In this document: positions 13,230-33,664 of the stretch, in pieces
Layout of the letters: each line of letters begins with the position of its first letter
Position numbering within the stretch: the first letter of the stretch is position 1
Source: Membranipora membranacea
Lineage: Eukaryota > Bryozoa > Gymnolaemata > Cheilostomatida > Membraniporidae
Assembly: GCA_914767715.1 (NCBI GenBank)
Contig: OU612068.1
Coordinates: 28,768,001-28,832,000, forward strand
Direction: 5' to 3'
Length of the DNA stretch: 64,000 nucleotides
The notes under the pieces: generated by a model
Database searches by the model: none
What the model saw: the letters and a program-made list of their open reading frames with translations, nothing else
What the model was told of the DNA's origin: nothing
Position numbers and translations under genes: made by a program

Positions 13230-14231
13230 TTTGGGAAGAGAAGAAAAAAATGGAATTGGTATTTGCGAGAGAATATTGGTATGAGTATGAGAATAAAGGA
13301 GTATCTATTCAAATGAGATATATATATATACCAAGACCAAGATCACCTGTGGATCAACAGATATATTCAGTTGACTTGAATTCAGTAGTTATCCCGATTC
13401 TCCAGCGTTATCTTCTCTTAACTTAATTAACAGGCTTGTATGATTATTTTATGTACTGCTCTGACTACCATAGACTTTCAATTTCTACGCACTGTGGCTA
13501 CAGATGTATGGCAATATCTGTGTCAGCGTTATATATAAGCTTATACTCTTTATAAACTTTAATAAGAAGGCATGTGTTACCCACAATACGGTGACAGGCA
13601 GTGTTAAAACCCTAGGTAGTCAACTAAACTTAGCTTCTTTGCTATAGGTGAATTTGTTGATTTGAATATCTCCTCATTTATAGATCCATGATATTTCTCT
13701 GATGATCAATTACATTATGATTTTTCAAACAAAGAAAAGTATCTATTGTATAATTGCGTAAAATTTGATCATTTTGAGACAGGCTGGTGAAATTGATTCT
13801 GCGTACATTGTTGATCTATACTGCCACATAATATATTTAGTCTTTCTGCTAAATAAATAGAATTTTCATAACGTCCATACCCGTAAAATCACCCTCATGA
13901 GAATACTTCCTATAAATATGGAGACTTTTTGAAGGTTGTGAGCGAGGCTTTTAAGTAAAATTTGAAAGTAATTATGACATCAGGTTATTGTCACTCTTAA
14001 CAATAAAAATACAAAGTGAAGGTGACAACTCATCAGGAACCAGTGGTGTTTATGGATTTGGATCAGTTAAATATTTATTAGAACCTGTCAGCGTTTCTTA
14101 TAAGCAAGATAAAATAAAACTTTCACTCATAGTTTTGGCCGACCTTTGATGTAGGAGTAGATCAGTGATATGCATTTGTTGTATTATGATAGTAGCACTG
14201 AGCTACAACTACTCCCACTACAACTCACCAG
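13230..14231. other. 3' flank of lectin copy 1, matched by the dead copy
   Basis: Segments here match the flank of the dead lectin copy: about 13430-13480 with 27620-27653 plus 32066-32090, 13568-13760 with 32155-32360, and 13800-13920 with 33680-33790. It is duplicated noncoding DNA without insertions and serves as the empty-site reference for the downstream transposons. Confidence 0.6.
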
Positions 14232-16353: not shown

Positions 16354-16677
16354 AAAATTCACACATGGAAACATGGTGATATAGAGCTGTGCAATGATTA
16401 ATTATGTATGTGAGAGACAGTGTGACTGCTTGCTGTTTTGATTCCTATTCATGAAAAAATTAGTTGATATTCTGTACCACATACTCAAGTAGCCAGTAGT
16501 AGTACGATTAGTTAAATTTGATTTATTGAAAACGGTACATTGTCTGATAACTCAGCGACAGCACGATGAAGAAATATCATTCATTTCTTCTACTTATGAT
16601 TATATCTCTCACAGGTAGGATTTTTACTATCTTTAGCTTGTAATTTCATATTGTTGCAGGTTATTCCAAATTTGGCC

Positions 16678-16962
16678 CGAGCCAAACTTGGCCCCATGTA
16701 CTGAAACTCGGCCCCAATTAGTAAAACTTGGCCCCAAATATAAAACTTGGCCCGATGCAATGAAACTTGGCCCCAATTAGTAAAGCTTGGCCCCAATTAG
16801 TAAAGATTGGCCCCAATTAGTAAAACTTGGCCCAATGCAATGAAACTTGGCCCAAAATATACAACTTATCCCCATGTACTGAAAATTGGCCAAATCTAAT
16901 GAAAATTTACCCCAATCAGTAAAACTTGGCCCCAAATACAAAACTTGGCCCCACATAGTAAA
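16678..16962 (-). repeat. Left tandem array (MULE terminal repeat)
   Basis: About 15 units of CTTGGCCCCAATTAGTAAAA and variants (CTTGGCCCCATGTACTGAAA). The outermost unit is a GGCCCGAGCC type. It is inverted relative to the array at 25497-26020. Confidence 0.85.
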
Positions 16963-18007
16963 ATTAGTAAAATACCAAAGTCAATTACCTTATCTGGTCG
17001 TTAAGACATATGCTATTATTTTTGTCATGCGTTTAGATTATGAAATAAACGTGTGTGTAGCTGCAATAAACTTTTATTTAATACAATTAATCATCAGAAG
17101 CATCGATTTAAAAAAATGAAAGAGAATTATGCATGTCTAGTAATAGTTACCTTATTATTGAATATAAAACTACAGAAGAACACAAAAGCCACTGTATGCA
17201 GGCAAAAATGATAATCCGTTCTTGCAAAATTAAATATTGCCTCCATTATAGAGACATAATGAATTTTTTGAGAATGAATGTGTGATTAAAAATGAGATTT
17301 TTATAAAGTTTGATGCAAAATATAAAATAGAGTAAGCAGCTAGAGTATTTATGTAATATCTAAACCTGAGCTAAAACCAATAGTTCTTTGAGTTTTATGC
17401 AACACAAAAATTTGGCTTTCAAGTGATAATACTTCGGTACTACCATGTACTAAGATGAAAACTATTGAGAGACAAAAAAAATTTCTTCTGAGATTAGAAA
17501 TGAGGTAACAATGAGACAATTTACAATGGTTGTTGCAAAAATATAAATGAAACAGTATGGGCAGTTGGATTGTTAGCTATTTACAAAACTTAGTTTCACA
17601 GTCTCCTAAGAGATAATTAATACATAGGTACCACCATGTAAAATGATGGAAAAAAATATGAGATAAAATACAAATTTCTGGGATAAGAAATGAGATGAAA
17701 ATCTGAGAATTTATAATGATGATGCAGCAAACTAAATGAAACATAATTGGCAGTAAGATTCTAAGTCTATCAATGCCATGAACTATTTACAATGCATGTG
17801 TATGATATAATTGTAGGTTGATCTACAGCTCCTGCTCAGAAGCTGTGAATTGTTCATTCACATCTTCGGAGCAGGAGTCGTCCTCAACGGCAGGCAGCAT
17901 ATGGTATGCCATATTTATTATTTGCCTGTATTAAATATTGTCTTCATCGAGTCGGTCCCAGGATTTTACCCAAAACCTGTTGAGTCTTTCACATTTTAAC
18001 TTTTTAT
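16963..18007. other. Noncoding interior between MULE left end and last transposase exon
   Basis: AT-rich DNA without recognisable genes, lying between the left terminal array and the transposase stop codon. A poly-A-signal-like AATAAA on the minus strand directly follows the TAA at 18010-18008. Confidence 0.4.
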
Positions 18008-20236
18008 TTAGACTGCTAAGCCTGCTGAAATCTCTTTCAGCTCCAGTTCTACGGAAGATGACTCTATCCGTAACTCTTCAATCAACATAAATGTTGGGGG
18101 CTTATCAACTCTCACCTGGCGATTAAACTTGTTATGCCAGCCTGAAAACGGAAACAATATTATTCAATATGCACACATAGCTTCTGTTTTAAAGAAGCCT
18201 GTGAATATTATTTACTTTCAAGCTATAGTAACGCCTCCCAATATTTGGTATCATATTGGATGTCTCGGGCTAATCAAGAGCACTGGCTCTTGATTAACCA
18301 GATACCTCCAATTGGATTTGTGGCAACATTTTAGATAGCCTATGAATTCAGTTGTACCGATGACCTTCATTCAAATAAATTTTCATCGTCATGCCATTAG
18401 CAATTCTTCTACTACCTAAGCAATATGTCATATACCAAAAGGCGCTACTATAGCTTTAACTTTATGATTTTAAGCATAGATTTTTGTAACACAGAAACAA
18501 AATGTTGGTTGTTGCTCATTGCATACTGAGTGATGAACCTTTCTGATCAGGTGAAGATTGCTTTACAAGGGTTCAAATATGAACAACCTTAAACGAATTG
18601 TGAAATTGAGTGGCAGTTACCTTCCAGAGAGTTATTTGTCCTTATCGCCTGTCGATACACACTCCAGAATTTTGGCTCAAATCTTCCATTGAGCCATGTA
18701 ATCTCAAAATACTCAAACAACTGCCTGAAGTGAGGGTCGTTGTTCTCCGCGACCACATAGCGATAAGCTTCCTGAATCAAGTGGACAGGTAGGTAGGAGA
18801 GCCCCCATAGAAACCCACAAACACGACGAGTGTTGTGGTGATGGCAATAGCCTGATGTGAGACCTGTAACATTAACCATGCACTATCAAGTTTTTGAGGT
18901 TGAGCTGATGTGAGAAGTTATGCTAGTATAAAGTTTTTCTTTTTTCATGGTTACTAACCTTGTAGAGAAACTCGGCGATAACTCTTTGTGCTTTCTCAAT
19001 TATGACTAAATAACTTCATAAGAAGTTAAAATTTGATATTTATTATATTATTAATATATCCGTTTATTGCATATTTATAATCATAATATTATTATTAATC
19101 ATAGTCATAGTTATTTATGCATAACGTTGACTTCTTACCAAGCTTTTGCACCCTGCGCCAGATGCATTTCCGGAAATGGAAGTTACATCCGATGTACTCC
19201 TTGAAACGCTGCTGAAGCAGCAGTCCAGATCCCTAAACAGACAAATGAGATGATTTTTTATGATACAACTGTGCACAAGGCAATAAATGTCTTTTGTTTT
19301 ATACAAATCGGAGGATTGGTCAAGGAAATATTGCACAGAACAAGAACAACATTGCAAAACACTACCATGTTATTTGTTCTGTCACTGCGTGATAAACATT
19401 CATAAAGATGATTGTAGATTGACAATAAAAGCGTATATGTACCAAGAAAAAATGAAGAAGTTGCCCTCAATTAACAAACCTCAAAACGAGGCTCCATTAT
19501 TGACATCTTGTGAATTAAAATCCTGCTATAGAGAATAATTAGCATGGTCATAAAAGTGAGGCTCTTCAATTGCCAAATCCAAGGAAAGTAGTTAAGAATA
19601 GGATCAGGGAACCACTTGACGACCTGCACAGGAGGAATTTCTGAATAATTTTAGTTCAACTTTAACATATTAACTTGTTTGTAATTAATAATGGCGTGAT
19701 TTTAAACGAGATAGTCTGATCAGTGGGTAACCTGTCGCTAATTAATCAGGATATCTAACCATCAAATAGTCTGCCTGCTGCTTTGAAGACATAAGGACAT
19801 ACACGGAGGGTAGTTGCTTTCCCCCATTGGCTGTTCTAACAAAGCAGTTTATTGTCAGAAGTCGTTGGAAAGGTTTGACAACTGTCTTGAAGGTTCCACC
19901 TATACCCCTACAATTGAAATTAGTCATGCTGAAGAAAGAAAATAATATATTGAAAATACAACAATATTATGAAAAGAGGTGACAAAAGGAAGAAGACCTG
20001 CAAACATGCAAATTCAATATTTGGCCTGCTGCATCGGTAGATGCTGTTTGTTGATACAGGATGACTTTCTAAATTACCAAGGCCCACGCATCCCATCCAA
20101 TGTAGTGATTCTCTTCTACAGACAACAGTGAACCACTTGAATTCCTAGACTCAGGTTCGGTGGCAATGATTCCTTCAATTGTTGTAATTTCAAACTTTGG
20201 TGCTTCCTGCCCTCAGTCTGTTTGATTTACATAGTA

Positions 20237-20409
20237 TGATATTATTGTTCGTTATGAATGTTGAATGAGGGCTGACGCAGTACGTGTTTGATTGATATAG
20301 ATAGAATTATCTTCACTTGGGGTTGTAGCTTATAGTGAGACGTTTAAATAAACGTGTTGACTTGTATAGGGTTAAACACTAACTGATTCATGTTCTATTG
20401 AATACTACA
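20237..20409 (-). repeat. 3' LTR
   Basis: 173 bp; starts TGATATTATTGTTCG on the plus strand and ends ACTACA. It is a direct repeat of 23602-23774. Confidence 0.9.
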
Positions 20410-22300
20410 TTTGTATTTCTCTACTGCTGTAACCAGGGCTAGTCCCTCCTTGTGTGTTATAGAATAATTTTGCTCAGCCCCTCTATATGATTGCCCACCA
20501 TATTCAATAACAGTTTCTGCTCCATTTGAATCAACCTGGCCCAAAATGTAGCCAATTGCAGTGTCAGAAGCATCAGTGTAAACCACAGGTTTATGGTCAG
20601 GATTTGGTAATGTCAATATTGGTGCTGATATCAGTGCTTCCCTTATACTTACAAATGCTGCCTGATGTTTATCTTGCCACACAAAATCCTTCATGCAGTG
20701 GATTAGCTATAGTGCTGTACTTTGATATGAATCTCAAATAGTAGTTAGCCATGCCAAGGAAAGACCTTACATCCCTCACACAAGTTGGAATTGGAAATTC
20801 AAGCACCGCTCTAACTTTATCAATATTCACAGATAATCCCTTGTCACTTATTTTATAGCCAAGATATGGGACCTCGGAGCGAGCAAACTTACATTTGTCT
20901 GGATGCAGTTTCAGGTTAGCCTGCTCCAAGCGGTCAAACACTTGTTTTAGGTGTGTTTTATGATCATCCCAGGTCTCAGAAAATACAATGATATCGTCGA
21001 TAAATGCCAGACAATGCTTCCAGCTTATGCCTTTCAATGTCTAAGACATCACAGCTTGGAATGACATGGGCATATTCATTAGTCCAAAGCTACACCTATT
21101 AAAGGTGTACACTCCATCATGAGTAATAAAACTCGATTTTTCTCTGGTTTCAGGGTCTAGTGGAACCTGATAGGGAGCACCTTTGAGGTCTAACACACTG
21201 AATACCTTCGCTTTATCATGACCTAAGGTTTCAACGACCTCTGTGAAGTTTGGTAATGGCCAAATCATTGGTTTTGTGACTGCATTGATTTTGCGGTAAT
21301 CTACTGCCATTCGCCATGATACACCGTCCGCTTTCTTGCACATCACTATCGGGCTGCACCATTGGCAGTCATCATTTTCATAAATGATACCTAGGTCTAG
21401 CAGTTCTTTGACCTGCCGTGTTATCTCTTGTTTTATTTCTGGAGATGATTTATAAGGGAACGACCTGACAGGAATGGCATCTCCAGTATCAATTTTGTGG
21501 CTATGCAAGTTTGTAAATCCTAATTCAGCCCAAGACTTAGCAAATCTGTCATGATTATCACTAATGATAGATGTCAGCTCTAGTTTTTCAACTCCTGACA
21601 GGCATGACGTACTTAGGTCAATGCCTAGTTCTGCTAATTTATCTGTTTTGTTATGATTAGTGTCAATCTTAGCCGCACTGACTTGAATGGGATTTCCCTG
21701 TTTACTATTGTTATTTTCATTCAACTCAAGAATGCTCATCGATACAAGGTCATTAGCTATAGGGGAAAGCCTTGCTATGGGATTCCCAGCCGGTATTATT
21801 AGATCACTATCACCATGGTTAGATATATGATACAAGGGATCTTCAGCCTCTATGATATATGTGCTACCCTTACACTCAATAAACTGATCCTGATCTATGA
21901 TGATAGGTTCGGCCATGAGCATACTGTTGACAGATTCGCTACTGGAAAGTTTAGCAGGACATGCCATGTGACTATGAGCAGGGACAACTAGTTCCTCAAG
22001 GGCAAGTAATGATAGTTGCGGCGTGGTTTTACTGGAAACTCTTTGAATGCTAGTGGCAAGCTGTCCCTCTAAATATAATGTACCCCTACTATTGTTATAT
22101 GTTATACATCCATTATGGGATTCCATAAAATCTATACCTAATATAATATCGTATTTCATGAAATCAGCGACATGAAAAATCTGGGAACAGCTAACCTTAC
22201 CTATGCTAAATTCTAGTTGTATAATACCTAATATTGGAATCTCAATATTTCCTACGCCACTTATTGTAGGAGTGTTACAGGGTGCTAATAATAACTAATA
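20395..22300 (-). pseudogene. LTR-element pol (protease, RT, partial RNase H), broken
   Basis: Protease region: LDTGAQASC near 22360, a stop near 22296, then YDIILGIDFMESHNGC. RT: MAVDYRKINAVTKP, FSVLDLKGAPYQVPLD, CSFGLMNMPMSFQ, a stop at about 21040, then the catalytic LAFIDDIIVFSE and VRSFLGMANYYLRF. RNase H begins at about 20695 after a frame break (PVVYTDASDTAIG) and is cut short at the 3' LTR. The domain order is that of Ty3/gypsy pol without integrase. Confidence 0.9.
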
Positions 22301-22456
22301 GTTAGGTATCATAATTCCTAATGATTTTGCCGTGATGCATGACGCTTGAGCCCCTGTGTCTAGCAAAGCCTGTTTGGCACCTCCTCCAAAGGAAACCTGG
22401 ACTAAACATTCAGACAACGAACCCAAACAGCCGACACGGACAGGGCCCGCTGATTG

Positions 22457-23527
22457 CTATTGTGTAGAACCTCCCGCAGCAGCGGCGGCTCCACCACGAG
22501 ACTGTGGTCCAGCACCACCAAAAAGACAGCGGGACTGAAAGTGCCCAATCCTCCCACAGCCCCTGCAGGTCTGACCAAAAACAAAACAAGCATTACTCAT
22601 GTGTGACTTACCACATCTTGGACAGTCTGTTATGTATGTTCCACTACAGCTACCACCACCATTTCTAGGACTACCACCACTATATCCGTTGTTTCTTGTC
22701 TGGTTGTAATTGTTACGGAAATTGTTTTGTCTCTGGGGCACAGCAGTGATGGCCGATATAGCAATCCGAATCTCTCTAGCGACGGATTCCTGTATTACTT
22801 GCTGCAAAGACGTATCAGAGGTTTTAGATGTGATTGCCGTGACGTTAGCGGTTGTTGAGGCTTCTATCGGTTTGAGTAGCCTGACATACTCCATCACAGC
22901 CTCCACTGACTTAGGTTTGTGGCACATCACCTGGCGTTGAATATCGCTCGGTAGGCCTCTCATAACGGCCTCCATCTTCTCCCGCTCGCTTTTGTTTGTG
23001 ATGGCAATGAGGCGGTCAATGTCTTCTGTGTATTTCTCTAATGTCTCAGCGTCCGACTCCCACCTTCTCTGCTTTAACTTACATACCGCTTTCCATTGGC
23101 GGTCTTCTGTGTCACTTCCATATCTCTGCTTGAATGATTTGATAAGCAGGTTGAAATTTCCACGGATCTCATCTGGTATTGTCGAGTAGTATGAGTAGGC
23201 ACCACTCGCTAAAAGCAGTGGTACCGTTTGAGCCTTCTCAGCCTCTGACAGCTTGTTTGATGAGAAAACAATGTCCAATTTCTCCACCCACTTGCCAAAA
23301 CTGCTCTGGCTAGCGTAGCCAGAGAACTTTCCAATTAACGTAAGTTCAGCTGAAGATATTGTGAACCTTTTCCTACTTGGTTTCTCCAATTCTTCAGCAT
23401 TATGTTGTGAGTCTGACTTTTCAGAGGGTGTTGTGGAAGACATCCTTTCCAGTTTGTCCCTGAGTTGCCTCAGCTCCTCATCTCGCTCCGCCAACTGACG
23501 CTTCAACTCAGCAGCTTTTGGAGGCAT
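22457..23527 (-). CDS. LTR-element gag polyprotein
   Basis: An intact frame of 356 codons from an ATG just inside the 5' LTR. It has an N-terminal coiled coil (MPPKAAELKRQLAERDEELR), a capsid-like middle (KWVEKLDIVFSSN ... ESDAETLEKYTEDIDRLI) and two C-terminal zinc knuckles (CPRCGKSHMSNAC and CRGCGRIGHFQSRC). The second fits CX2CX4HX4C; the first has one residue fewer. The pol frame follows after this one ends. The gag itself shows no break, unlike pol. Confidence 0.85.
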   Translation of the reverse strand: MPPKAAELKRQLAERDEELRQLRDKLERMSSTTPSEKSDSQHNAEELEKPSRKRFTISSAELTLIGKFSGYASQSSFGKWVEKLDIVFSSNKLSEAEKAQTVPLLLASGAYSYYSTIPDEIRGNFNLLIKSFKQRYGSDTEDRQWKAVCKLKQRRWESDAETLEKYTEDIDRLIAITNKSEREKMEAVMRGLPSDIQRQVMCHKPKSVEAVMEYVRLLKPIEASTTANVTAITSKTSDTSLQQVIQESVAREIRIAISAITAVPQRQNNFRNNYNQTRNNGYSGGSPRNGGGSCSGTYITDCPRCGKSHMSNACFVFGQTCRGCGRIGHFQSRCLFGGAGPQSRGGAAAAAGGSTQ

Positions 23528-23601
23528 ACTTGCAGATAATCTTATATTTCTTTCTGTTTATCTGGTACGCAGGATCTTTAAGAGAGCAGCTCCACCATAT
23601 A

Positions 23602-23774
23602 TGATATTATTGTTCGTTATGACTGTTGAATGAGGGCTGACGCAGTACGTGTTTGATTGATATAGATAGAATTATCTTCATTTTGGGTTGTAGCTTATAG
23701 TGAGACGTTTAAATAAACGTGTTGACTTGTATAGGGTTAAACACTAACTGATTCATGTTCTATTGACTACTACA
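23602..23774 (-). repeat. 5' LTR
   Basis: 173 bp direct repeat of 20237-20409. On the minus strand it reads TGTAGTAGTCAATAGAACAT at its start and ends AATATCA. Confidence 0.9.
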
Positions 23775-24761
23775 TAGCACGCATATAAAGGATTAAAATG
23801 ATTGTGGGGTCAGAGGTTAACAATTGTAAAAAATGATTCATACTATAATAGCAAGATACACCATCGGTATTATAAAGTTCCGTATTACTGCAGTTTCTTC
23901 ATGAAGCTTCTTGACAGCCCTATCAACAATTGTTGATGTCGGGCAAACGTATCCTCATTTACTAACTTTTCTGCCTGGTAGAATCATAAACAAACAAAAA
24001 TCATCAGACTATCGGATAACCACATTTGTTTCAATGCACGTAATCTGTAACATTCATAAATTATTAATGTCAGAGAGCAGACAAGCTTTATAGTTTGCCT
24101 ATAGAGTCAACTACCATACCTCTCTAGCGATGCGAGCACCTTCTAGTGGTTTCCTATAGGCAGGATGATTGTGATCCCCTCTACTTATATTGAATGCTCC
24201 ATTCGACTCTTTCACCATTGCTTTACACTTTGTTGGCTTGCCATACCTCGCACAACGCCATGAAACTACCACTTCCTATCAAGAGATCAGTAGTATACAG
24301 TAGTCATGTTAAGCCAACAGACAATTTCAGTACAATTCATGGTTTTATTATTAAATTTGTCAGTTGCGTTTTATTGGCAGCTTATTCCAAAATCAAGAAA
24401 ATATGTTTATGTTCAGTAGTTGGATGTCGCTGAAGTACCTCAAAATCCCTGTTCTTCTTAACATAGCGATGTCCTAGATGTCGATCGATTAAGCAATTCC
24501 CTTTGCGCTGGGTCGCTGCTCTCACTAACGCAAACCTCGGACCATCGATAACTGTATCTATACATTGCCTGAAATGTGCATTATGATATATGTTATGCAG
24601 TATGTATGTGCGTAGGATTTAGCTGTTTTATCATTTTTTGTATTAATGAAGCTATGATAAGGATGATTAATTTTCCACTCTGACAAAGTATGAAGATTCT
24701 GCAACACTTTTGTGTTTTGCCTGTGAGCAACTGTTCTGACCCAAGAATAGTGACAATATTA

Positions 24762-25102: not shown

Positions 25103-25496
25103 TATTACTAAAGCTAGATCCTGATGCTGAATCATTGTTGAATCTTCTTGTCAGCGATTATAATATATGTTACAGACATTTAGAATATGATGTTTCTTAA
25201 CATTTTTACCTATCATCTTCAAGTCTGGCCTCCTCCGCTAGTTGCACTGCATCTTTTTCTTTTTCAATGAATGAGATTCTGGCGCAATTGACAATATTGG
25301 AAAAAAGAATAAAGCAGGACAAATTGAAAGATTTACATAAAACAATATCATGTCTTAGAAACTGACTTGCTCATCAAACAGGTCTACCCATCCTGTTCAC
25401 TTGACTGAGCCCGTGATCCAAAGAATACAGAACAAGACAATTAAAGAGCTTTTTTATCTGTGATACACAAAATAACAAATTAAATACCTCCACGTT

Positions 25497-26020
25497 TTAC
25501 TAATTGGGGCCAAGTTTCAGTACTTAAGGCCAAGTTTTATATTTGTGGCCAAGTTTTACTAATTTGGGCCAAGTTCCAGTACTTGGGGCCAAGTTTTACT
25601 AATTGGGGCCAAGTTTCAGTAGTTGGGGCCAAGTTTTACAAATTGGGGCCAAGTTTCAGTACTTGGGGCCAAGTTTTACTAATTGGGGCCAAGTTTCATT
25701 GCATGGGGCCAAGTCTTACTAATTGGGGCCAAGTTTTACTAATTGGGGCCAAGCTTTACTAATTGGGGCCAAGTTTCATTGCTTCGGGCCAAGTTTTATA
25801 TTTGGGGCCAAGTTTGGCTCGAGCCAAATTTGGCTCGGCCAAATTTGGTTGGGCCAGGTTTGGCTCGGGCCAGGTTTGGCTCGGGCCAGGTTTGGCTCGG
25901 GCCAAGTTTGGCTCGGACCAAGTTTGGCTCCGGCCAAGTTTGGCTCCGGCCAAGTTTGGCTCCGGCCAAGTTTGGCTCCGGCCAAGTTTGGCTCTGGCCA
26001 AGTTTGGCTCCGGCAAAGTT
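25497..26020 (+). repeat. Right tandem array (MULE terminal repeat)
   Basis: The inner part alternates GGGGCCAAGTTTTACTAATT and GGGGCCAAGTTTCAGTACTT. The outer part has about a dozen 16-bp units (GGCTCGGGCCAAGTTT, then GGCTCCGGCCAAGTTT). All frames stay open across it because of the repeat period, so the long frames there are not genes. Confidence 0.9.
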
Positions 26021-27652: not shown

Positions 27653-27817
27653 GATACAACATACAGTGGTGCGCGTACCACTGCACAACACACAGGTCTT
27701 CAGCTAGAAACCATGAGTCAAACGCTGTTTCGAGGCCTTCTCTAGTACAACCTCCTCATGGCCGGCCCCAGCAGCATGAAGCCACCCCTGTGTGTTGCTG
27801 AGCATCTCAATCAATCT
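27653..27817. repeat. 165-bp direct repeat, left copy
   Basis: Identical over 165 bp to 31901-32065. It starts GATACAACATACAGTGG and ends CTCAATCAATCT. The two copies bracket the RT/endonuclease element. Confidence 0.95.
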
Positions 27818-27825
27818 CATCGATC

Positions 27826-28110
27826 CCTCAGTGCATTTTGTCAGTTTCGGTGGTTTGACATAATTGGTGTGTTTACGCTGTTGCGCAACCAGGGAGGCTG
27901 CCAACTCTTCATTGTTTCAGTGCAACAATGTTCGCCCCATCACTCTCATGCTTATACTCTAAGCCAAACCAGTGCAGGGAGGTTTGCTTTCCATCAACTC
28001 ATCGGCGCAAAGTCGCTATCGTCAAGGCACCCGCCCCTCGTGCCACTCGTTCGCTACTCAAATTCACCACATTGAGCATAGTACAACTCATACACAAGTC
28101 AGAGAGATGA
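27826..28110. repeat. Dispersed repeat, copy 1 (3' end of the RLE element)
   Basis: Shares GACATAATTGGTGTGTTTAC, CAACTCTTCATTGTTTCA and GGAGGTTTGCTTTCCATCAA-type strings with 43060-43330 and 48960-49250, in the same orientation. Confidence 0.75.
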
Positions 28111-28439
28111 CTTGTTTACGCTACAGCCAGTGGGCTGACTGTGATTTCCTGTCTCGCTCTGCCTGCCTTTTATGCGAGGGCCAAGCTTTTAATCCTATGT
28201 TTGTAAAACCTTAGATCTAACTCAGACTCACTTTGGTTTTCACTCTGCAGAGATTAAACTACTTTAATTTGAGTATTAAAGGCATAATCTTGCTTAGCCT
28301 TCTACCCCAAGCAATTTGCTTATCATCACTTAATCCCCTCATTCTAATCCTTACAAGGATTATAACAAAAGGAATTAAATGCTGGCCAACTCCACGAAAC
28401 AAAGTGAGTGTGTTAAACCCCAGCTTACAAGTAATAGGA

Positions 28440-31400
28440 TTACTTAGCTTTTGTCTTCACACAGTGCTGTTGCCATATCCATGCAGATGCGCTTTCTGCC
28501 TCATGTACTATGCTTTTTGTGGCTTGTTTGAGTGCTCTTCCTGAAAGCCCAACTCTGGTCAGAAATTTGGTAGCTGATCTAGCCATGAATCCACGGCAGC
28601 CAACTTCCACTGCGAATAATTCGCAATTCCAACCTTTGTCTTGGCATTGTGTGACCAGATCTTCGTATCTTGTCAGTTTTCTCTCATGCGCATATGAGAG
28701 ATTTTCTTCCCAAGGCACCGTCAATTCCATCAGTATTAGTGCTTTTTCTTTGTCAGACCAAACAATTAAGTCTGGTCTTTGGTTCGTGATCACAATATGC
28801 TGTGGCATGCTGAGCTGCTCTGTGAGGTCGCATCTCACCTGCCATTCTCCGCTGTTCATCAATCCCTTTTTGCGCAAAATCTTTTCACGCGCTTCACCAC
28901 CAGCATTAGCATATTCACACTTCTCCGTGACATATTTACACAACACTTTCAGGACTTGATTATGCCTATACGTGTATCTTCCCAGGCTCTGTTGGCAATT
29001 CGACAGTATATGTCGAAGTGTGCCCTTAGCCGAGCACTCGGCGCATTTCGAGTTCTCGGTCAAATTCCAGCGTTCCAGGTTTGCCGGGGTCGGTAGTTGA
29101 TCATAAGCTGCACCAACCAGAAAGCTGATCCTTTGTGGCTCCATCGACCACAATTCTGTCCATTTGAGCTGACGCTGCTCAACAGACTCCCAACAAGTCC
29201 ACCTGCCTTGTTGGGCTTGGCCTACAGCTTGTGTCTGGCGGCGCTCCTCTTCCATCTTGCGCACCTCATCAACTACCATCTCCCGTCTAACCTTTGGGCT
29301 TTCCTTTGAGAACCACCGGTTTGCTTCCCAGCCGATGCCATGACGTGCAGTTGTCACAGCACCCACAATCTCACTTATCTCCAGTCGAGATTTGGCATCT
29401 CTGACAGTCTCTGTGACAGACCATTTTTTACCAGTGTCAAGTGTTGGAGCACATTCCCTTATCACCTGGTCTGGTGACTCGTTCAACATCATATCCAGTC
29501 TCGCCTTTGATGTTTTGTACTCTTCCACAAGCGATTTCATAGGTAGTGAAAGAGTAAACGAACTGGCATACAGTGCATTAGTGTTGAAGCTCCTTGGAAC
29601 TCCAAGCCACTTACGCATGTGCTTGTTAATCATTTGCTCCATTCTCTCAACTGGTGTTAGCGGAATATCATAAACTGTCAGAGGCCACAGAATTCGAGGC
29701 ATGAGTGCAAAGTTGAGAATCCAGGCTTTGTATTTGCCAGACAGACCACATTTTTCAATCGCGTCCAGCCCTGTAATGAGTTGCTTTTTCACCTCGTTTC
29801 CGCGAAACCTGTCTGTGATCGGTAAACTGTACCATCTTCCTAAGCTCTTCACAGGCTGCTCTGCAAGCGTGGGAATACGCTCTGTTCCTATGAAGTAGGT
29901 ATTTGGTACAGGTTTGCCTTTACACAAAGACAGGGACCGGCTCTTGCTAGGTTTGAATCGCATCGCACATCTCTCTATCAACTCATGCAGTCTATCGATT
30001 GAAGCTACAACCTGGGCCTTATCTGGTGATATTATTGTAATATCGTCCATAAAGGCCCTCATCGGCGGTAGTATCTGGTTATTCGCAACCTGGATCCCAT
30101 TCACACTGCCTTGCGAATTCCGTATAACTATCTCCATCACCATAACGAATAGCAAAGGTGATATAGCACATCCCATAGGGATGCCTACTGCCAGCTCTTG
30201 CCAGCTCGTGGTAAAGTTCTTAGTAGTGAATCGCATTTTGAACTTTTTATAGTAGCGCTCAACCATAACCCTTAGCCTGTCGGGCACCCAGAAGTGTGAT
30301 AGTGCGAGGTCAATTATGCTGTGCGGTACAGAACCATAGGCATTCGCCAAATCCAACCAGATTACCTCAAGGTTCGATTTTGCTTGTTTAGCAGACTTTA
30401 TTGCTGACCAAATCATGCTCACATGCTCAAGACATCCAGGGAATCCTGGGATGCCTGCCTTCTGAACTGATGGATCAATGAATCCATTGTTCATAAGATA
30501 ATCTGTGAGGCGTTTTGCCAGAACGCTGAAGAATATCTTGCCTTCTACATTTAGCAGTGATATTGGTCTAAACTGCCCTAGGTCCTCCGCCTTATCCTCT
30601 TTCGGTATATACACACCATTCGCACAACACCACTCATCTGGGATCTTGCCAGACTTCCAGATTTGGTTGAGCACTTTTGTCAAGATCTCCAGTATGCCTG
30701 GACATTTCTTGTATAGCTTATAACTGATGCCATTAATTCCTGGAGCACTTTTGGCACGTGCCTTGGTAACTACATGTGCAACTTCTCCAAGCTTGATATC
30801 ACCCATCTCAAAACTGAAACCTGGAGATGTTGGACGTTTAAGCCCAGCAATATCAGTGTTCACCTCGCTCTTGTTACCGTACACTTTTGCCAAGTGTGCC
30901 TCGACTTCTGCCTGGCTAGCCTTGAGCTCGCCGCTCTTACTCTGCTCAAACAACTTCTTGGCAAATCCGTATGGATTTTTCATGAAATTGTTCAAGTTCT
31001 TTCGCTTCAACTTCCTCTTCTTCCTCAAGGCCTCAGCTCTGGCTAGCCTTCTTATTCGATCCTTGACATCATTAAGCAATACAGAAAGCCCATGCCTTTC
31101 TGATTCAGCGCAATTTCTCATTCTCTCTCTCAGCGCGCGTTGCTGAGTTCTCAGTTTGCCTTTCTCATATTGGCGTCTATTTGGTATTTTGGTGCACTGA
31201 GTTCCACCTCGTTTCGCAACTAAGCCAAACTTCTCCTCACAAATTGAAAAGAGGATAGCAGGCAGTTGTTTGGCCTTTTTCTCACCGCTTCCAGTCAATG
31301 CAGAGTTGAGAGCAACAACTGCATATTCGTCAAGCTCACGCCAAGTCTTGACACTGCTCATCTTTGGCCACTCAACCTCCTGCCTTTCACAACCGCTCCC

Positions 31401-31772
31401 ATGATGCTCGGTGGGTGTTTGAGAAATGGTTGTCTGCCCACTGTGGTTTTCAACCTGGGGCAGTGTACCATCCGTCTTAGGTGCAGAGTTATCTACACTG
31501 CGGTTCTCTAACACCACTTCGCATCCCTTCTTAGTTCTGTGTATTTTCATACCACGCTCAGTTTTGAAACCCCTCTGGCATACGCAAGTCCATGGCATTT
31601 CCGAGTTCGTTATAACAGTTAACCGGGTACCAGTAGGTCTCTCATCCTCCCCTTCGTTTCCGGGTAGACCTTGGGGGCATTTTTCCATATACGAACTTGT
31701 TGCGAGTGGTGGGTTGCCCATCATGACATAATCATAATGTTCGGGACTTCGGGCTGCGAACCCTGGTCCCAC
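28440..31772 (-). CDS. RT / restriction-like endonuclease polyprotein of R2/NeSL-like LINE
   Basis: 1110 codons without a stop. An N-terminal zinc-finger-like motif (CVCQRGFKTERGMKIHRTKK, followed by GC) lies near residues 62-83. The RT occupies the middle: KSAPGINGISYKLYKK, FRPISLLNVEGKIFFSVLAK, DLANAYGSVPH, GIPMGCAISPLLF and the catalytic FMDDITII. Toward the C-terminus are a CCHC knuckle (CAECSAKGTLRHILSNC) and a PD-(D/E)XK-type endonuclease (RPDLIVW ... LMELTVPWEENLSYAHERK). This layout, with no APE endonuclease, marks RLE-bearing LINEs of the R2/NeSL/Hero group, which nick a target and prime reverse transcription there. MMGNPP at residue 17 is an alternative start. The intact frame suggests a recent insertion. 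Confidence 0.9.
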   Translation of the reverse strand: MGPGFAARSPEHYDYVMMGNPPLATSSYMEKCPQGLPGNEGEDERPTGTRLTVITNSEMPWTCVCQRGFKTERGMKIHRTKKGCEVVLENRSVDNSAPKTDGTLPQVENHSGQTTISQTPTEHHGSGCERQEVEWPKMSSVKTWRELDEYAVVALNSALTGSGEKKAKQLPAILFSICEEKFGLVAKRGGTQCTKIPNRRQYEKGKLRTQQRALRERMRNCAESERHGLSVLLNDVKDRIRRLARAEALRKKRKLKRKNLNNFMKNPYGFAKKLFEQSKSGELKASQAEVEAHLAKVYGNKSEVNTDIAGLKRPTSPGFSFEMGDIKLGEVAHVVTKARAKSAPGINGISYKLYKKCPGILEILTKVLNQIWKSGKIPDEWCCANGVYIPKEDKAEDLGQFRPISLLNVEGKIFFSVLAKRLTDYLMNNGFIDPSVQKAGIPGFPGCLEHVSMIWSAIKSAKQAKSNLEVIWLDLANAYGSVPHSIIDLALSHFWVPDRLRVMVERYYKKFKMRFTTKNFTTSWQELAVGIPMGCAISPLLFVMVMEIVIRNSQGSVNGIQVANNQILPPMRAFMDDITIISPDKAQVVASIDRLHELIERCAMRFKPSKSRSLSLCKGKPVPNTYFIGTERIPTLAEQPVKSLGRWYSLPITDRFRGNEVKKQLITGLDAIEKCGLSGKYKAWILNFALMPRILWPLTVYDIPLTPVERMEQMINKHMRKWLGVPRSFNTNALYASSFTLSLPMKSLVEEYKTSKARLDMMLNESPDQVIRECAPTLDTGKKWSVTETVRDAKSRLEISEIVGAVTTARHGIGWEANRWFSKESPKVRREMVVDEVRKMEEERRQTQAVGQAQQGRWTCWESVEQRQLKWTELWSMEPQRISFLVGAAYDQLPTPANLERWNLTENSKCAECSAKGTLRHILSNCQQSLGRYTYRHNQVLKVLCKYVTEKCEYANAGGEAREKILRKKGLMNSGEWQVRCDLTEQLSMPQHIVITNQRPDLIVWSDKEKALILMELTVPWEENLSYAHERKLTRYEDLVTQCQDKGWNCELFAVEVGCRGFMARSATKFLTRVGLSGRALKQATKSIVHEAESASAWIWQQHCVKTKAK

Positions 31773-31795
31773 CCTGGGTTTCTTTCAACCATGTC

Positions 31796-31870
31796 AACTG
31801 TCTTTCCAATAGTCAGCTGTCTTTCCAGCAGTCAGCTGTCTTTCCAGCAGTCAGCTGTCTTTCCAGCAGT
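31796..31870. repeat. 19-bp tandem repeat in the RLE element leader
   Basis: CAGCTGTCTTTCCAGCAGT is repeated three times, with a decayed first unit (CTGTCTTTCCAATAGT). Confidence 0.85.
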
Positions 31871-31900
31871 CAAGCCAGATACTATCTAGCCCACAACAAA

Positions 31901-32065
31901 GATACAACATACAGTGGTGCGCGTACCACTGCACAACACACAGGTCTTCAGCTAGAAACCATGAGTCAAACGCTGTTTCGAGGCCTTCTCTAGTACAACC
32001 TCCTCATGGCCGGCCCCAGCAGCATGAAGCCACCCCTGTGTGTTGCTGAGCATCTCAATCAATCT
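31901..32065. repeat. 165-bp direct repeat, right copy
   Basis: Identical to 27653-27817. It is followed by CTGACTGACTACC, which resumes alignment with the intact lectin 3' flank (CTGACTACC near 13470). Confidence 0.95.
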
Positions 32066-32375
32066 GACTGACTGACTACCAATAGCCCTTTCAATATTTT
32101 TCTTTGTCAGCATTGTATATTGACTTATGCTGTTCAAAAGCTTTTATGCGATGACATGTGTTACCCACAATGCAGTGACAGTCAGTGTTAAAAACCTGGT
32201 AAGTCCACCTTAACTTCTTGCCATTGGGTCTGAGAGCCAATTATGGCACTGGTGAATTTATCGAACTGAATATCTCGTTATTTATAGATTAATGTAATTT
32301 CTCTGATCATCACTTGCATAAAAATGTTTGGAACAAAAAAAAGGTTCCCATAGTATATTTGCTTAAAAGCTGATT

Positions 32376-33664
32376 AAGGTTATGGTTATGATACCAGCGT
32401 TGACCGATTTGGACATTTTATATACCGTTGGAAAGCTGCTGAGCTACTGATTGCTAATTGCTCATCAAAAACGTGATTGGATTACGTTGCGCCAATTAAT
32501 CGGAGAAATGAGGCCGAAAAGGATGTTTTTAGCAAAGTGGATGGCTGCGCTACATTGATTACTAGAAAGTTCAAAACAGGTTACATTAATTCTTAGAGAC
32601 ATAGTTCATCCTAATTTTAGGTTGAAAATAATATTTCATGAGCCCAAAGTGGCTTTTTACGTCACGTCATAATGTGTGTGGTTTTTTAACTTTGATGATA
32701 TAATGCGAAATTTTAAGCAACGATTTGAGACAGTTTGAATAAAAAAGGGCCAATTTTTTTGCTTTTTTCCACTATATTGCTGTTTAAATGACACAAACCA
32801 CAAATTTCAGCAGTATATCAAATGTATCGATATCAGCATAGACCATCAAAGGTAAATACATTTTGCGCCATTTATCAATAACGTCAAACATGCTGTCAAA
32901 AGGTCCAGCACTTATAAGCCAGACAAATTTATTTTGAAAACTCTCACATACGAAGCCGCTTTGATTAAGCATAGTAAAAACAGGAAATGCCAACAGAATA
33001 TGTCACTATGTTTAAGTCTTCCTCGAATTATACCACACAGAATGCCGAAAAACACCTTGAAAAGCCCCTTAAATTGGCTGTTTTTGGCATTCTGTGTGGT
33101 ATAATTTTCAAAATAAATTTGTCTGTCCTTAGTGCTGGACCTTTTGACAGCATGTTTGACGTTATTGATAAATGGCGCAAAACGTATCTACCTTTGATGG
33201 TCTATGCTGATATTGATACATTTGATATACTGCTGAAATTTGTGGTGTGTGTCATTTAAACAGCAATATAGTGGAAAAAAGCAAAAGATTTGTCCCTTTT
33301 TTATTCGAACTGTCTCAAATTGATGCTTAAAATTTAGCATTATATATTCAAAGTTAAAAAACAACACGCATTATGACGTGACGTAAAAAGCCATTTTGGG
33401 CTCATCATCAAATATTATTTTAAACCTTAAATTAGGATGAACTATGTCTCTAAGAATGAATGAAACCTGTTTAGAAATTTGTAGCAATCAATGTAGCGCG
33501 GCCATCCACTTTGCTAAAAACAGCCTTTTCGGCCTCATTTCTCCGATAAAATGACGCAACGTCATCCAATCACGTTTTTGATGAGCTATTAGCGATCAGT
33601 AGCTCAGCAGCTTTCCAACGGTATATAAAATGTCCAAATCGGTCAACGCTGGTATCATAACCTT
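32376..33664. mobile_element. 1.3-kb foldback element in the lectin-copy flank
   Basis: The left end AAGGTTATGGTTATGATACC and the right end GGTATCATAACCTT are inverted. Homology between the arms runs about 570 bp inward (for example ATGAGGCCGAAAAGGATG against CCTTTTCGGCCTCAT). Both arms encode the same short frame (AGPFDSMFDVIDKWRK). A second, smaller inverted repeat lies at the centre (AATTATACCACACAGAATGC at 33027 and its complement at about 33085). The element is missing from the matching flank of the intact lectin copy. No transposase was found. Confidence 0.85.

What the first reader, a model, noticed from the sequence alone, without database searches (positions are those of the whole stretch)
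27653..32065. Uninterrupted R2/NeSL-like retrotransposon between identical 165-bp direct repeats
A non-LTR element with a C-terminal restriction-like endonuclease should not have LTRs, yet two identical 165-bp copies bracket it exactly. Comparison with the intact lectin flank shows that the 165-bp unit is itself extra at CCCTGA|CTACC. Two readings fit. In the first, the element cut staggered and made an unusually long target duplication inside an earlier 165-bp repeat; a 126-bp duplication is known for the rotifer R9 element. In the second, it carries true terminal direct repeats. The first is favoured because the dispersed repeat beginning at 27826 looks like the element's 3' end, just inside the left copy.
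Basis: partly seen in the sequence, partly recalled or inferred. Interest (0 to 1): 0.88.

Follow-up and report, generated by a model that had tools for sequence, protein, structure and literature searches.

The report
LINE capped by its own tail
This jumping gene of the R2 type looks as if it sat between two identical repeats, but the front repeat is a second, broken-off copy of its own tail end, probably added when the copying enzyme ran off the start of one RNA and jumped onto the tail of another; nearly every complete copy of this family that was found in the genome carries such a cap.

Summary
Observation confirmed: two identical 165-bp copies bracket an intact ~1100-aa R2-type (restriction-like-endonuclease) LINE on the minus strand. 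The 165 bp is neither a target nor a fixed terminal repeat; it is the element's own 3' end. Thirty of 37 copies examined are ordinary 5'-truncated copies ending in it, and 0 of those 30 has a second copy in front. Of 26 copies found that reach the true 5' end (TTTGTTGTGGGC), 24 are preceded directly by a 5'-truncated piece of the family's 3' end, usually joined at GTATGTTGTATC|TTTGTTGTGGGC (15 exact places in the genome; control 0). The extra piece varies from 17 to about 640 nt (one odd case 3203); 165 is only this copy's value. Complete copies are thus head-to-tail partial tandems, made only when reverse transcription reaches the RNA's 5' end. Best explanation: end-to-end template jumping onto the 3' end of another element RNA, then an early stop within the 3' UTR. 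R2 enzymes do this in vitro and Penelope-like elements have the same anatomy; my searches of open-access papers found no report of it as the usual state of a restriction-like-endonuclease LINE. New variant of a known kind.

The parts
27653..31900 (-). complete element unit, 4248 bp, 5' end TTTGTTGTGGGC (31900) to 3' end GTATGTTGTATC (27653)
   Evidence: L011 is a full unit with exactly these limits and no front cap
31901..32065 (-). upstream partial copy (cap): last 165 nt of the element, joined head-to-tail to the complete unit
27653..27817 (-). 3'-terminal 165 nt of the complete unit
31889..31912 (-). head-to-tail junction GTATGTTGTATC|TTTGTTGTGGGC
   Evidence: 20 genomic places with at most 2 mismatches (15 exact), control 0
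28440..31724 (-). single ORF from first ATG (1094 aa; 1110 aa from GTG at 31772)
29862..30608 (-). reverse transcriptase domain (residues 389-637 of the 1110-aa reading)
   Evidence: Pfam RVT_1 E 1.7e-23; R2 proteins are the best sequence and fold matches
28995..29045 (-). CX2CX7HX4C zinc knuckle (C910, C913, H921, C926)
   Evidence: invariant in the 25-row alignment A1
28590..28775 (-). restriction-like endonuclease core (P1000 D1001, E1016, K1032)
   Evidence: invariant in A1; weak alignment to the R2 endonuclease region
27653..28439 (-). 3' UTR, 787 nt; 19 of the 20 measured caps derive wholly from it
31781..31872 (-). 19-bp tandem repeats in the 5' UTR
   Evidence: offset self-matches
32066..32079 (.). 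GACTGACTGACTAC: 5' target flank with extra GACT repeats (can be read as a 4-bp duplication plus filler)
   Evidence: by eye against the paralogue at 13440-13500

Best explanation
A non-site-specific R2-superfamily LINE (restriction-like endonuclease, possibly HERO-like) whose complete insertions are head-to-tail partial tandems. Shown: copies share a fixed 3' end (GTATC). Where copying stopped early there is a plain 5'-truncated copy. Where it reached the fixed 5' end (TTTG), the copy nearly always continues into the 3' end of a second copy of the same family and stops there, mostly within the 787-nt 3' UTR. Inferred: the step is an end-to-end template jump of the reverse transcriptase from the 5' end of the first RNA to the 3' end of a second element RNA or 3' UTR fragment, after which second-strand synthesis closes the insertion. 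In at least one case the second RNA probably came from the same source copy. The 165-bp 'repeat' is the jump product in this one copy, not an LTR and not a target duplication.
For: 24 of the 26 complete 5' ends found carry an upstream piece of the family's 3' end, against 0 of 30 5'-truncated copies (no element piece over 50 nt lies in front, and none of the 25-nt flanks printed ends in GTATC; Fisher p 7e-14; the 30 come from a sample chosen for an identical 165-bp 3' end). The junction is precise: 15 exact places and 20 with at most 2 mismatches in the genome, 0 in the reversed control. Cap lengths vary (20 measured: 17 to 633, and 3203), and the flanks printed for 14 loci, plus window, L010 and L035, differ by eye, so the caps look newly made at each insertion. 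L018 carries 21 extra nt of tail-like repeats at the junction, resembling the doubled tail GTTGTATC at the 3' end of L009, as expected if synthesis restarts on a 3' end. L011 starts at exactly nt 1 and L057 at about nt 2 without a cap, so RNA with that 5' end exists. In L045 a rare base (8 of 298 exact 3' ends) is shared by its cap and its own 3' end. Caps of at least 165 nt are far shorter than 5'-truncated copies (medians 317 and 2170 nt, KS p 4e-6). The protein's nearest solved relatives are R2 proteins, reported to jump from full-length cDNA to further 3' UTR RNA in vitro (PMC11371274, passages).
Against: The jump itself is not observed; there are no RNA or enzyme data. Plain jumping onto an intact second RNA does not predict such short second copies, so an early stop or short 3' UTR acceptors must be added. 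Differences found only in the cap (L046, L048, L018, L032, L054) or only in the 3' end (L048, L018) give no support for a common source and need later mutation, copying error or a different acceptor RNA. In L024 the cap's 3892G is found at one other place in the genome but not in its own downstream part; that downstream part has no exact 3' end nearby and is broken or rearranged.
Confidence: 0.68

Rival explanations
1. Promoter in the tail (HeT-A-like): capped source copies are transcribed from start sites inside the upstream 3' UTR piece, so the RNA already carries a variable cap, and ordinary copying of that RNA gives the caps.
For: Explains why caps are short and lie in the 3' UTR and why several start at the same or nearly the same element position with different flanks (L046 and L048 at 3932; L047 and L032 at 3858 and 3860).
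Against: A source cannot give progeny a longer cap than its own, so caps should shrink to nothing without some renewing step; L011 starts at exactly nt 1; the extra tail repeats of L018 look like a new 3' start. No promoter was tested.
Confidence: 0.17
2. Circular or concatemeric element RNA is copied round more than once (as proposed for retrozyme-type RNAs).
For: Exact junction in 15 places; rare base shared by both ends of L045.
Against: A second lap should be as long as first-lap truncations, but it is far shorter (KS p 4e-6); start at exactly nt 1 in L011; no Rfam ribozyme match.
Confidence: 0.1
3. Self-targeted nesting: a new full-length copy inserts exactly behind the 3' end of an older truncated copy.
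For: Would give the same order of pieces.
Against: Most copies sampled are 5'-truncated, so most nested second copies should be truncated; none of 30 truncated copies sits behind a tail. No sign of preference for own tails as targets: of the 36 loci, 35 run into differing flanks and the one exception is L024's own cap junction.
Confidence: 0.02
4. Long target-site duplication of a 165-bp repeat or fixed terminal direct repeats.
For: Exact 165-bp identity in this copy.
Against: The unit is the element's own 3' end; repeat length varies from copy to copy; truncated copies and L011 have none; the empty-site paralogue lacks the unit.
Confidence: 0.01

Closest known systems
R2 LINE proteins (B. mori, zebra finch): template jumping in vitro; head-to-tail tandem junctions in human cells
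   Same: Same protein architecture by sequence and fold. R2 proteins jump from full-length cDNA to further 3' UTR RNA in vitro; head-to-tail tandem repeats were the major 3' junction class for endonuclease-dead proteins in cells (PMC11371274, passages).
   Different: R2 is 28S-specific; this element has no evident site. Here the tandem is the usual form of a natural complete insertion (24 of 26 found) and the second piece is short.
Penelope-like elements (Pen2_Av, PAc) with pseudo-LTRs
   Different: Those elements have a GIY-YIG endonuclease, and a hammerhead ribozyme and an internal start of reverse transcription are described for PAc; here an R2-type RT and restriction-like endonuclease, no Rfam ribozyme match, and a fixed 3' end.
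HeT-A/TART telomeric LINEs of Drosophila
   Same: A tandem array makes a non-LTR element resemble an LTR element (PMC5537684, one figure legend seen); promoter use from a neighbouring copy is recalled.
   Different: Those sit at telomeres; here single dispersed partial tandems in which the cap seems to come with the insertion.
HERO clade of restriction-like-endonuclease LINEs
   Same: Many non-specific families with a restriction-like endonuclease are described for HERO (PMC4640811, passages); lancelet and fish relatives are 40-45% identical.
   Different: Clade not tested: no named HERO sequence was available. No partial-tandem habit of HERO was found in the searches made.
Rotifer R9 (126-bp target duplication)
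   Same: Long direct repeats around a LINE (from the finding's text and recall; no paper seen).
   Different: There the repeat is target DNA; here it is the element's own 3' end.

Membership tests
R2-superfamily (restriction-like-endonuclease) LINE | single ORF with LINE-type RT closest to R2 | tested here: met
   Pfam RVT_1 1.7e-23; best PDB sequence match R2 9nl2 2e-25; best fold matches are R2 proteins, first E 2e-38
R2-superfamily (restriction-like-endonuclease) LINE | C-terminal CCHC knuckle and PD..(D/E)..K endonuclease residues | tested here: met
   C910 C913 H921 C926 and P1000 D1001 E1016 K1032 invariant in 25 rows; motif names recalled
R2-superfamily (restriction-like-endonuclease) LINE | fixed 3' end with 5' truncation (TPRT signature) | tested here: met
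   30 of 37 copies 5'-truncated, all ending GTATC; but the sample was chosen by its identical 165-bp end
R2 proper | insertion at one 28S rDNA site | tested here: not met
   the 3' flanks printed differ from copy to copy
HERO clade | RT phylogeny within HERO | not testable with these tools
   no named HERO reference sequence at hand
Penelope-like element | GIY-YIG endonuclease and Penelope RT | tested here: not met
   only RVT_1 and a sub-cut-off zf-RVT found by Pfam; nearest structures are R2
Penelope-like element | partial tandem with pLTR-like repeats | tested here: met
   24 of the 26 complete 5' ends found
LTR retrotransposon | fixed-length LTRs at both ends of every intact copy | tested here: not met
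   cap length 17 to about 640 nt, absent in L011 and L057
Long target-site duplication (R9-like) | repeat equals target DNA present once in the empty site | tested here: not met
   paralogous empty site lacks the 165-bp unit; unit is the element 3' end
Retrozyme / HDV-ribozyme element | self-cleaving ribozyme at the junction or 5' end | tested here: not met
   no Rfam match at gathering; four sub-threshold miRNA/lncRNA matches, best E 0.081, no ribozyme

The most novel reading that the evidence does not exclude
Jumping onto a second element 3' end is a built-in, near-obligatory closing step of full-length integration in this LINE. The acceptor is a 3' UTR RNA held by the partner protein subunit, and the resulting cap gives the new copy an upstream regulatory or RNA-binding segment, an independent route by which a LINE acquires LTR-like ends.
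Probability: 0.3. Interest if true: 0.8.

Novelty: new variant of a known kind. Interest (0 to 1): 0.6.

Why it matters
Template jumping by R2-type enzymes is described in vitro, but its role in nature is unclear: for Drosophila R2 a jump onto the upstream target DNA was proposed and later replaced by another model by the same group (PMC2718515, passages). Here two dozen natural insertions seem to record a jump: where copying reached the RNA's end it went on into a second tail, otherwise not. That makes the end of first-strand synthesis testable by counting junctions, shows a convergence with Penelope pseudo-LTRs, and bears on R2-based gene insertion, where tandem products have been reported (PMC11371274, passages).

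Tried and rejected
Long target duplication and fixed terminal repeats: rejected by genome copies. Dispersed 165-bp repeat as an independent SINE or retrozyme: rejected for the copies examined, where the unit is the 3' end of an element. Ribozyme: nothing in Rfam (also L011 and L057). Structured 3' RNA: the 165 nt fold better than shuffles (z -2.7), but the 10-row alignment gives no covariation support (cells paired 93.0% against 93.2% shuffled; 1 pair changed on both sides), so this is inconclusive. Target-site duplications: among 37 copies only L025 (18 bp) has a clear one at the junction (duplications under about 10 bp would not stand out); the short one of the window copy is read by eye. 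Common-source test: L045 positive; L018 and L032 share the commoner base 4059T in both halves (13 of 57 rows counted; not all rows cover the site); win, L035, L047 and L010 show no informative difference; L046, L048 and L054 have cap-only differences. For L024, L046 and L052 the downstream 3' end was not where predicted, so they were not comparable; for L024 and L046 a cap base was then searched genome-wide and not found near the downstream part. L049: a genome search lists a likely own 3' end 7.4 kb downstream, which is not the closest relative of the cap. Dropped before counts: caps of L059, C2:31115010 and the two C6 copies were not measured (20 of 24 measured); the two C6 copies lie 16 kb apart and may be one event duplicated; only caps of 165 nt or more (15 of 20) entered the KS test; three junction places with 3 mismatches were neither examined nor counted. 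The search behind the 26 scored only 40 of 380 candidates, so diverged copies may be missing. A guess at the host organism was not followed.

Full report
What is in the window. On the minus strand, 27653-31900 holds one complete unit (4248 bp) with an open frame of 1110 aa from GTG, or 1094 aa from the first ATG. Directly in front of it, head to tail, lies a second copy of its last 165 nt (31901-32065). Both 165-bp copies are identical.

What the 165 bp is. A search of the window's own genome (339 Mb, 18 contigs, unnamed) returned 40 identical places of the 165-bp unit, the scored part of 1174 unconfirmed first-look candidates. I fetched 36 loci covering these places other than the window. In 30 of the 37 copies (36 plus the window) the element is cut short at its 5' side and ends with the 165 nt at GTATC. 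So the unit is the element's 3' end. The 3' flanks differ between copies; two insertions (L010, L032) seem to lie in coding sequence of other retroelements (read by eye), so there is no evident fixed site. A clear target duplication was seen only in L025 (18 bp).

Complete 5' ends. Starting from a search with the 5' UTR (40 of 380 candidates scored), I read upstream sequence at 22 further 5' ends and the window, then scanned the whole genome for the 5' end (23 places with at most 3 mismatches) and for the junction (20 places with at most 2 mismatches, 15 of them exact, reversed control 0; three more with 3 mismatches not examined). Together this gives 26 complete 5' ends: the 23 plus three whose 5' region differs (L050, L057, L058). 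Twenty-four have the family's 3' end directly in front; L018 has 21 extra tail-like bases between, L059 has a diverged subfamily tail whose last stretch differs, and the two places on C6 were read over 58 nt each. The two without a cap are L011, which starts at exactly nt 1, and L057, which starts at about nt 2.

Caps vary. Twenty caps could be measured: 17, 55, 62, 143, 158, 165, 171, 180, 223, 226, 230, 239, 317, 317, 349, 389, 391, 465, 633 and 3203 nt (values as entered; some ends are uncertain by several bases, and one search gives slightly different values where the aligner ran on). Flanks differ by eye. Nineteen of the 20 lie within the 787-nt 3' UTR. The exception, L024, has a broken downstream part. 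Among copies or caps of at least 165 nt, caps are much shorter than truncated copies (medians 317 and 2170; KS p 4e-6). None of the 30 truncated copies has a cap (Fisher p 7e-14 against 24 of 26): no element piece over 50 nt was found in front, and no printed 25-nt flank ends in GTATC. Caveat: the 30 come from copies with an identical 165-bp end, hence probably young ones.

Mechanism. A cap was seen only where copying had reached the element's 5' end, and it runs to the element's fixed 3' end. That is what an end-to-end template jump onto a second 3' end gives. [quoted passage not shown] Nesting of a second insertion behind an old tail would yield mostly truncated second copies, and none was seen. 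Copying round a circle or along an intact second RNA predicts longer second parts; I infer an early stop, because second-strand synthesis takes over or because the acceptors are 3' UTR fragments. Source: L045 carries a base found at only 8 of 298 exact 3' ends in the genome (8 with it; 290 with the common base), two of which are its own cap and its own 3' end, so its two parts likely come from one source copy. Other copies are uninformative or show cap-only differences; these do not support a common source.

What kind of element. Pfam gives RVT_1 and a zf-RVT match below its cut-off. The nearest solved proteins by sequence and fold are R2 proteins (model mean pLDDT 80). Knuckle and endonuclease residues are invariant in an alignment with 24 relatives of 38-83% identity. 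Relatives named by sources include lancelet and fish proteins. HERO is the likeliest clade, because non-specific insertion is described for it (PMC4640811, passages), but this was not tested.

Compared with what is known. Penelope-like elements have the same anatomy: partial tandems of a full-length and a 5'-truncated copy, hence pseudo-LTRs (PMC3846280 and PMC11167929, passages). R1 tandem arrays in Drosophila appear to arise instead by insertion into the target duplication (PMC2718515, passages), and Utopia-1_NVit is occasionally tandem in U2 genes (PMC4640811, passages). I found no paper describing caps as the usual state of complete copies of a restriction-like-endonuclease LINE in the searches made (listings), which cover open-access papers only. 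The result is a new variant of a known kind.

Noticed in passing
window 20235-23775: 176-bp direct repeats 98% identical (20235-20410, 23600-23775) around two minus-strand ORFs, one with an RT match: probably a small LTR retrotransposon.
   Followed up: no
window 32384-33662: Nested inverted repeats (arms of 286 and 258 nt, 93% complementary) next to the insertion: a hairpin-forming, MITE-like repeat.
   Followed up: no
window 16666-16971 and 25481-25839: Arrays of about 20-bp units (AAACTTGGCCCC...) occurring in opposite orientations.
   Followed up: no
L059 1-760: A diverged subfamily copy (about 75% identical) whose cap ends in TTTTGTATC without the 165-nt module, so the terminal module may have been gained, lost or exchanged between subfamilies.
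   Followed up: partly
L024 and L061: Only cap longer than the 3' UTR (3203 nt); its downstream unit has no 3' end at the predicted place, so the locus seems rearranged.
   Followed up: partly
L046 and L048; L047 and L032: Caps with different flanks that begin at the same or nearly the same element position (3932; 3858/3860), which might mark RNA ends or pause sites.
   Followed up: no
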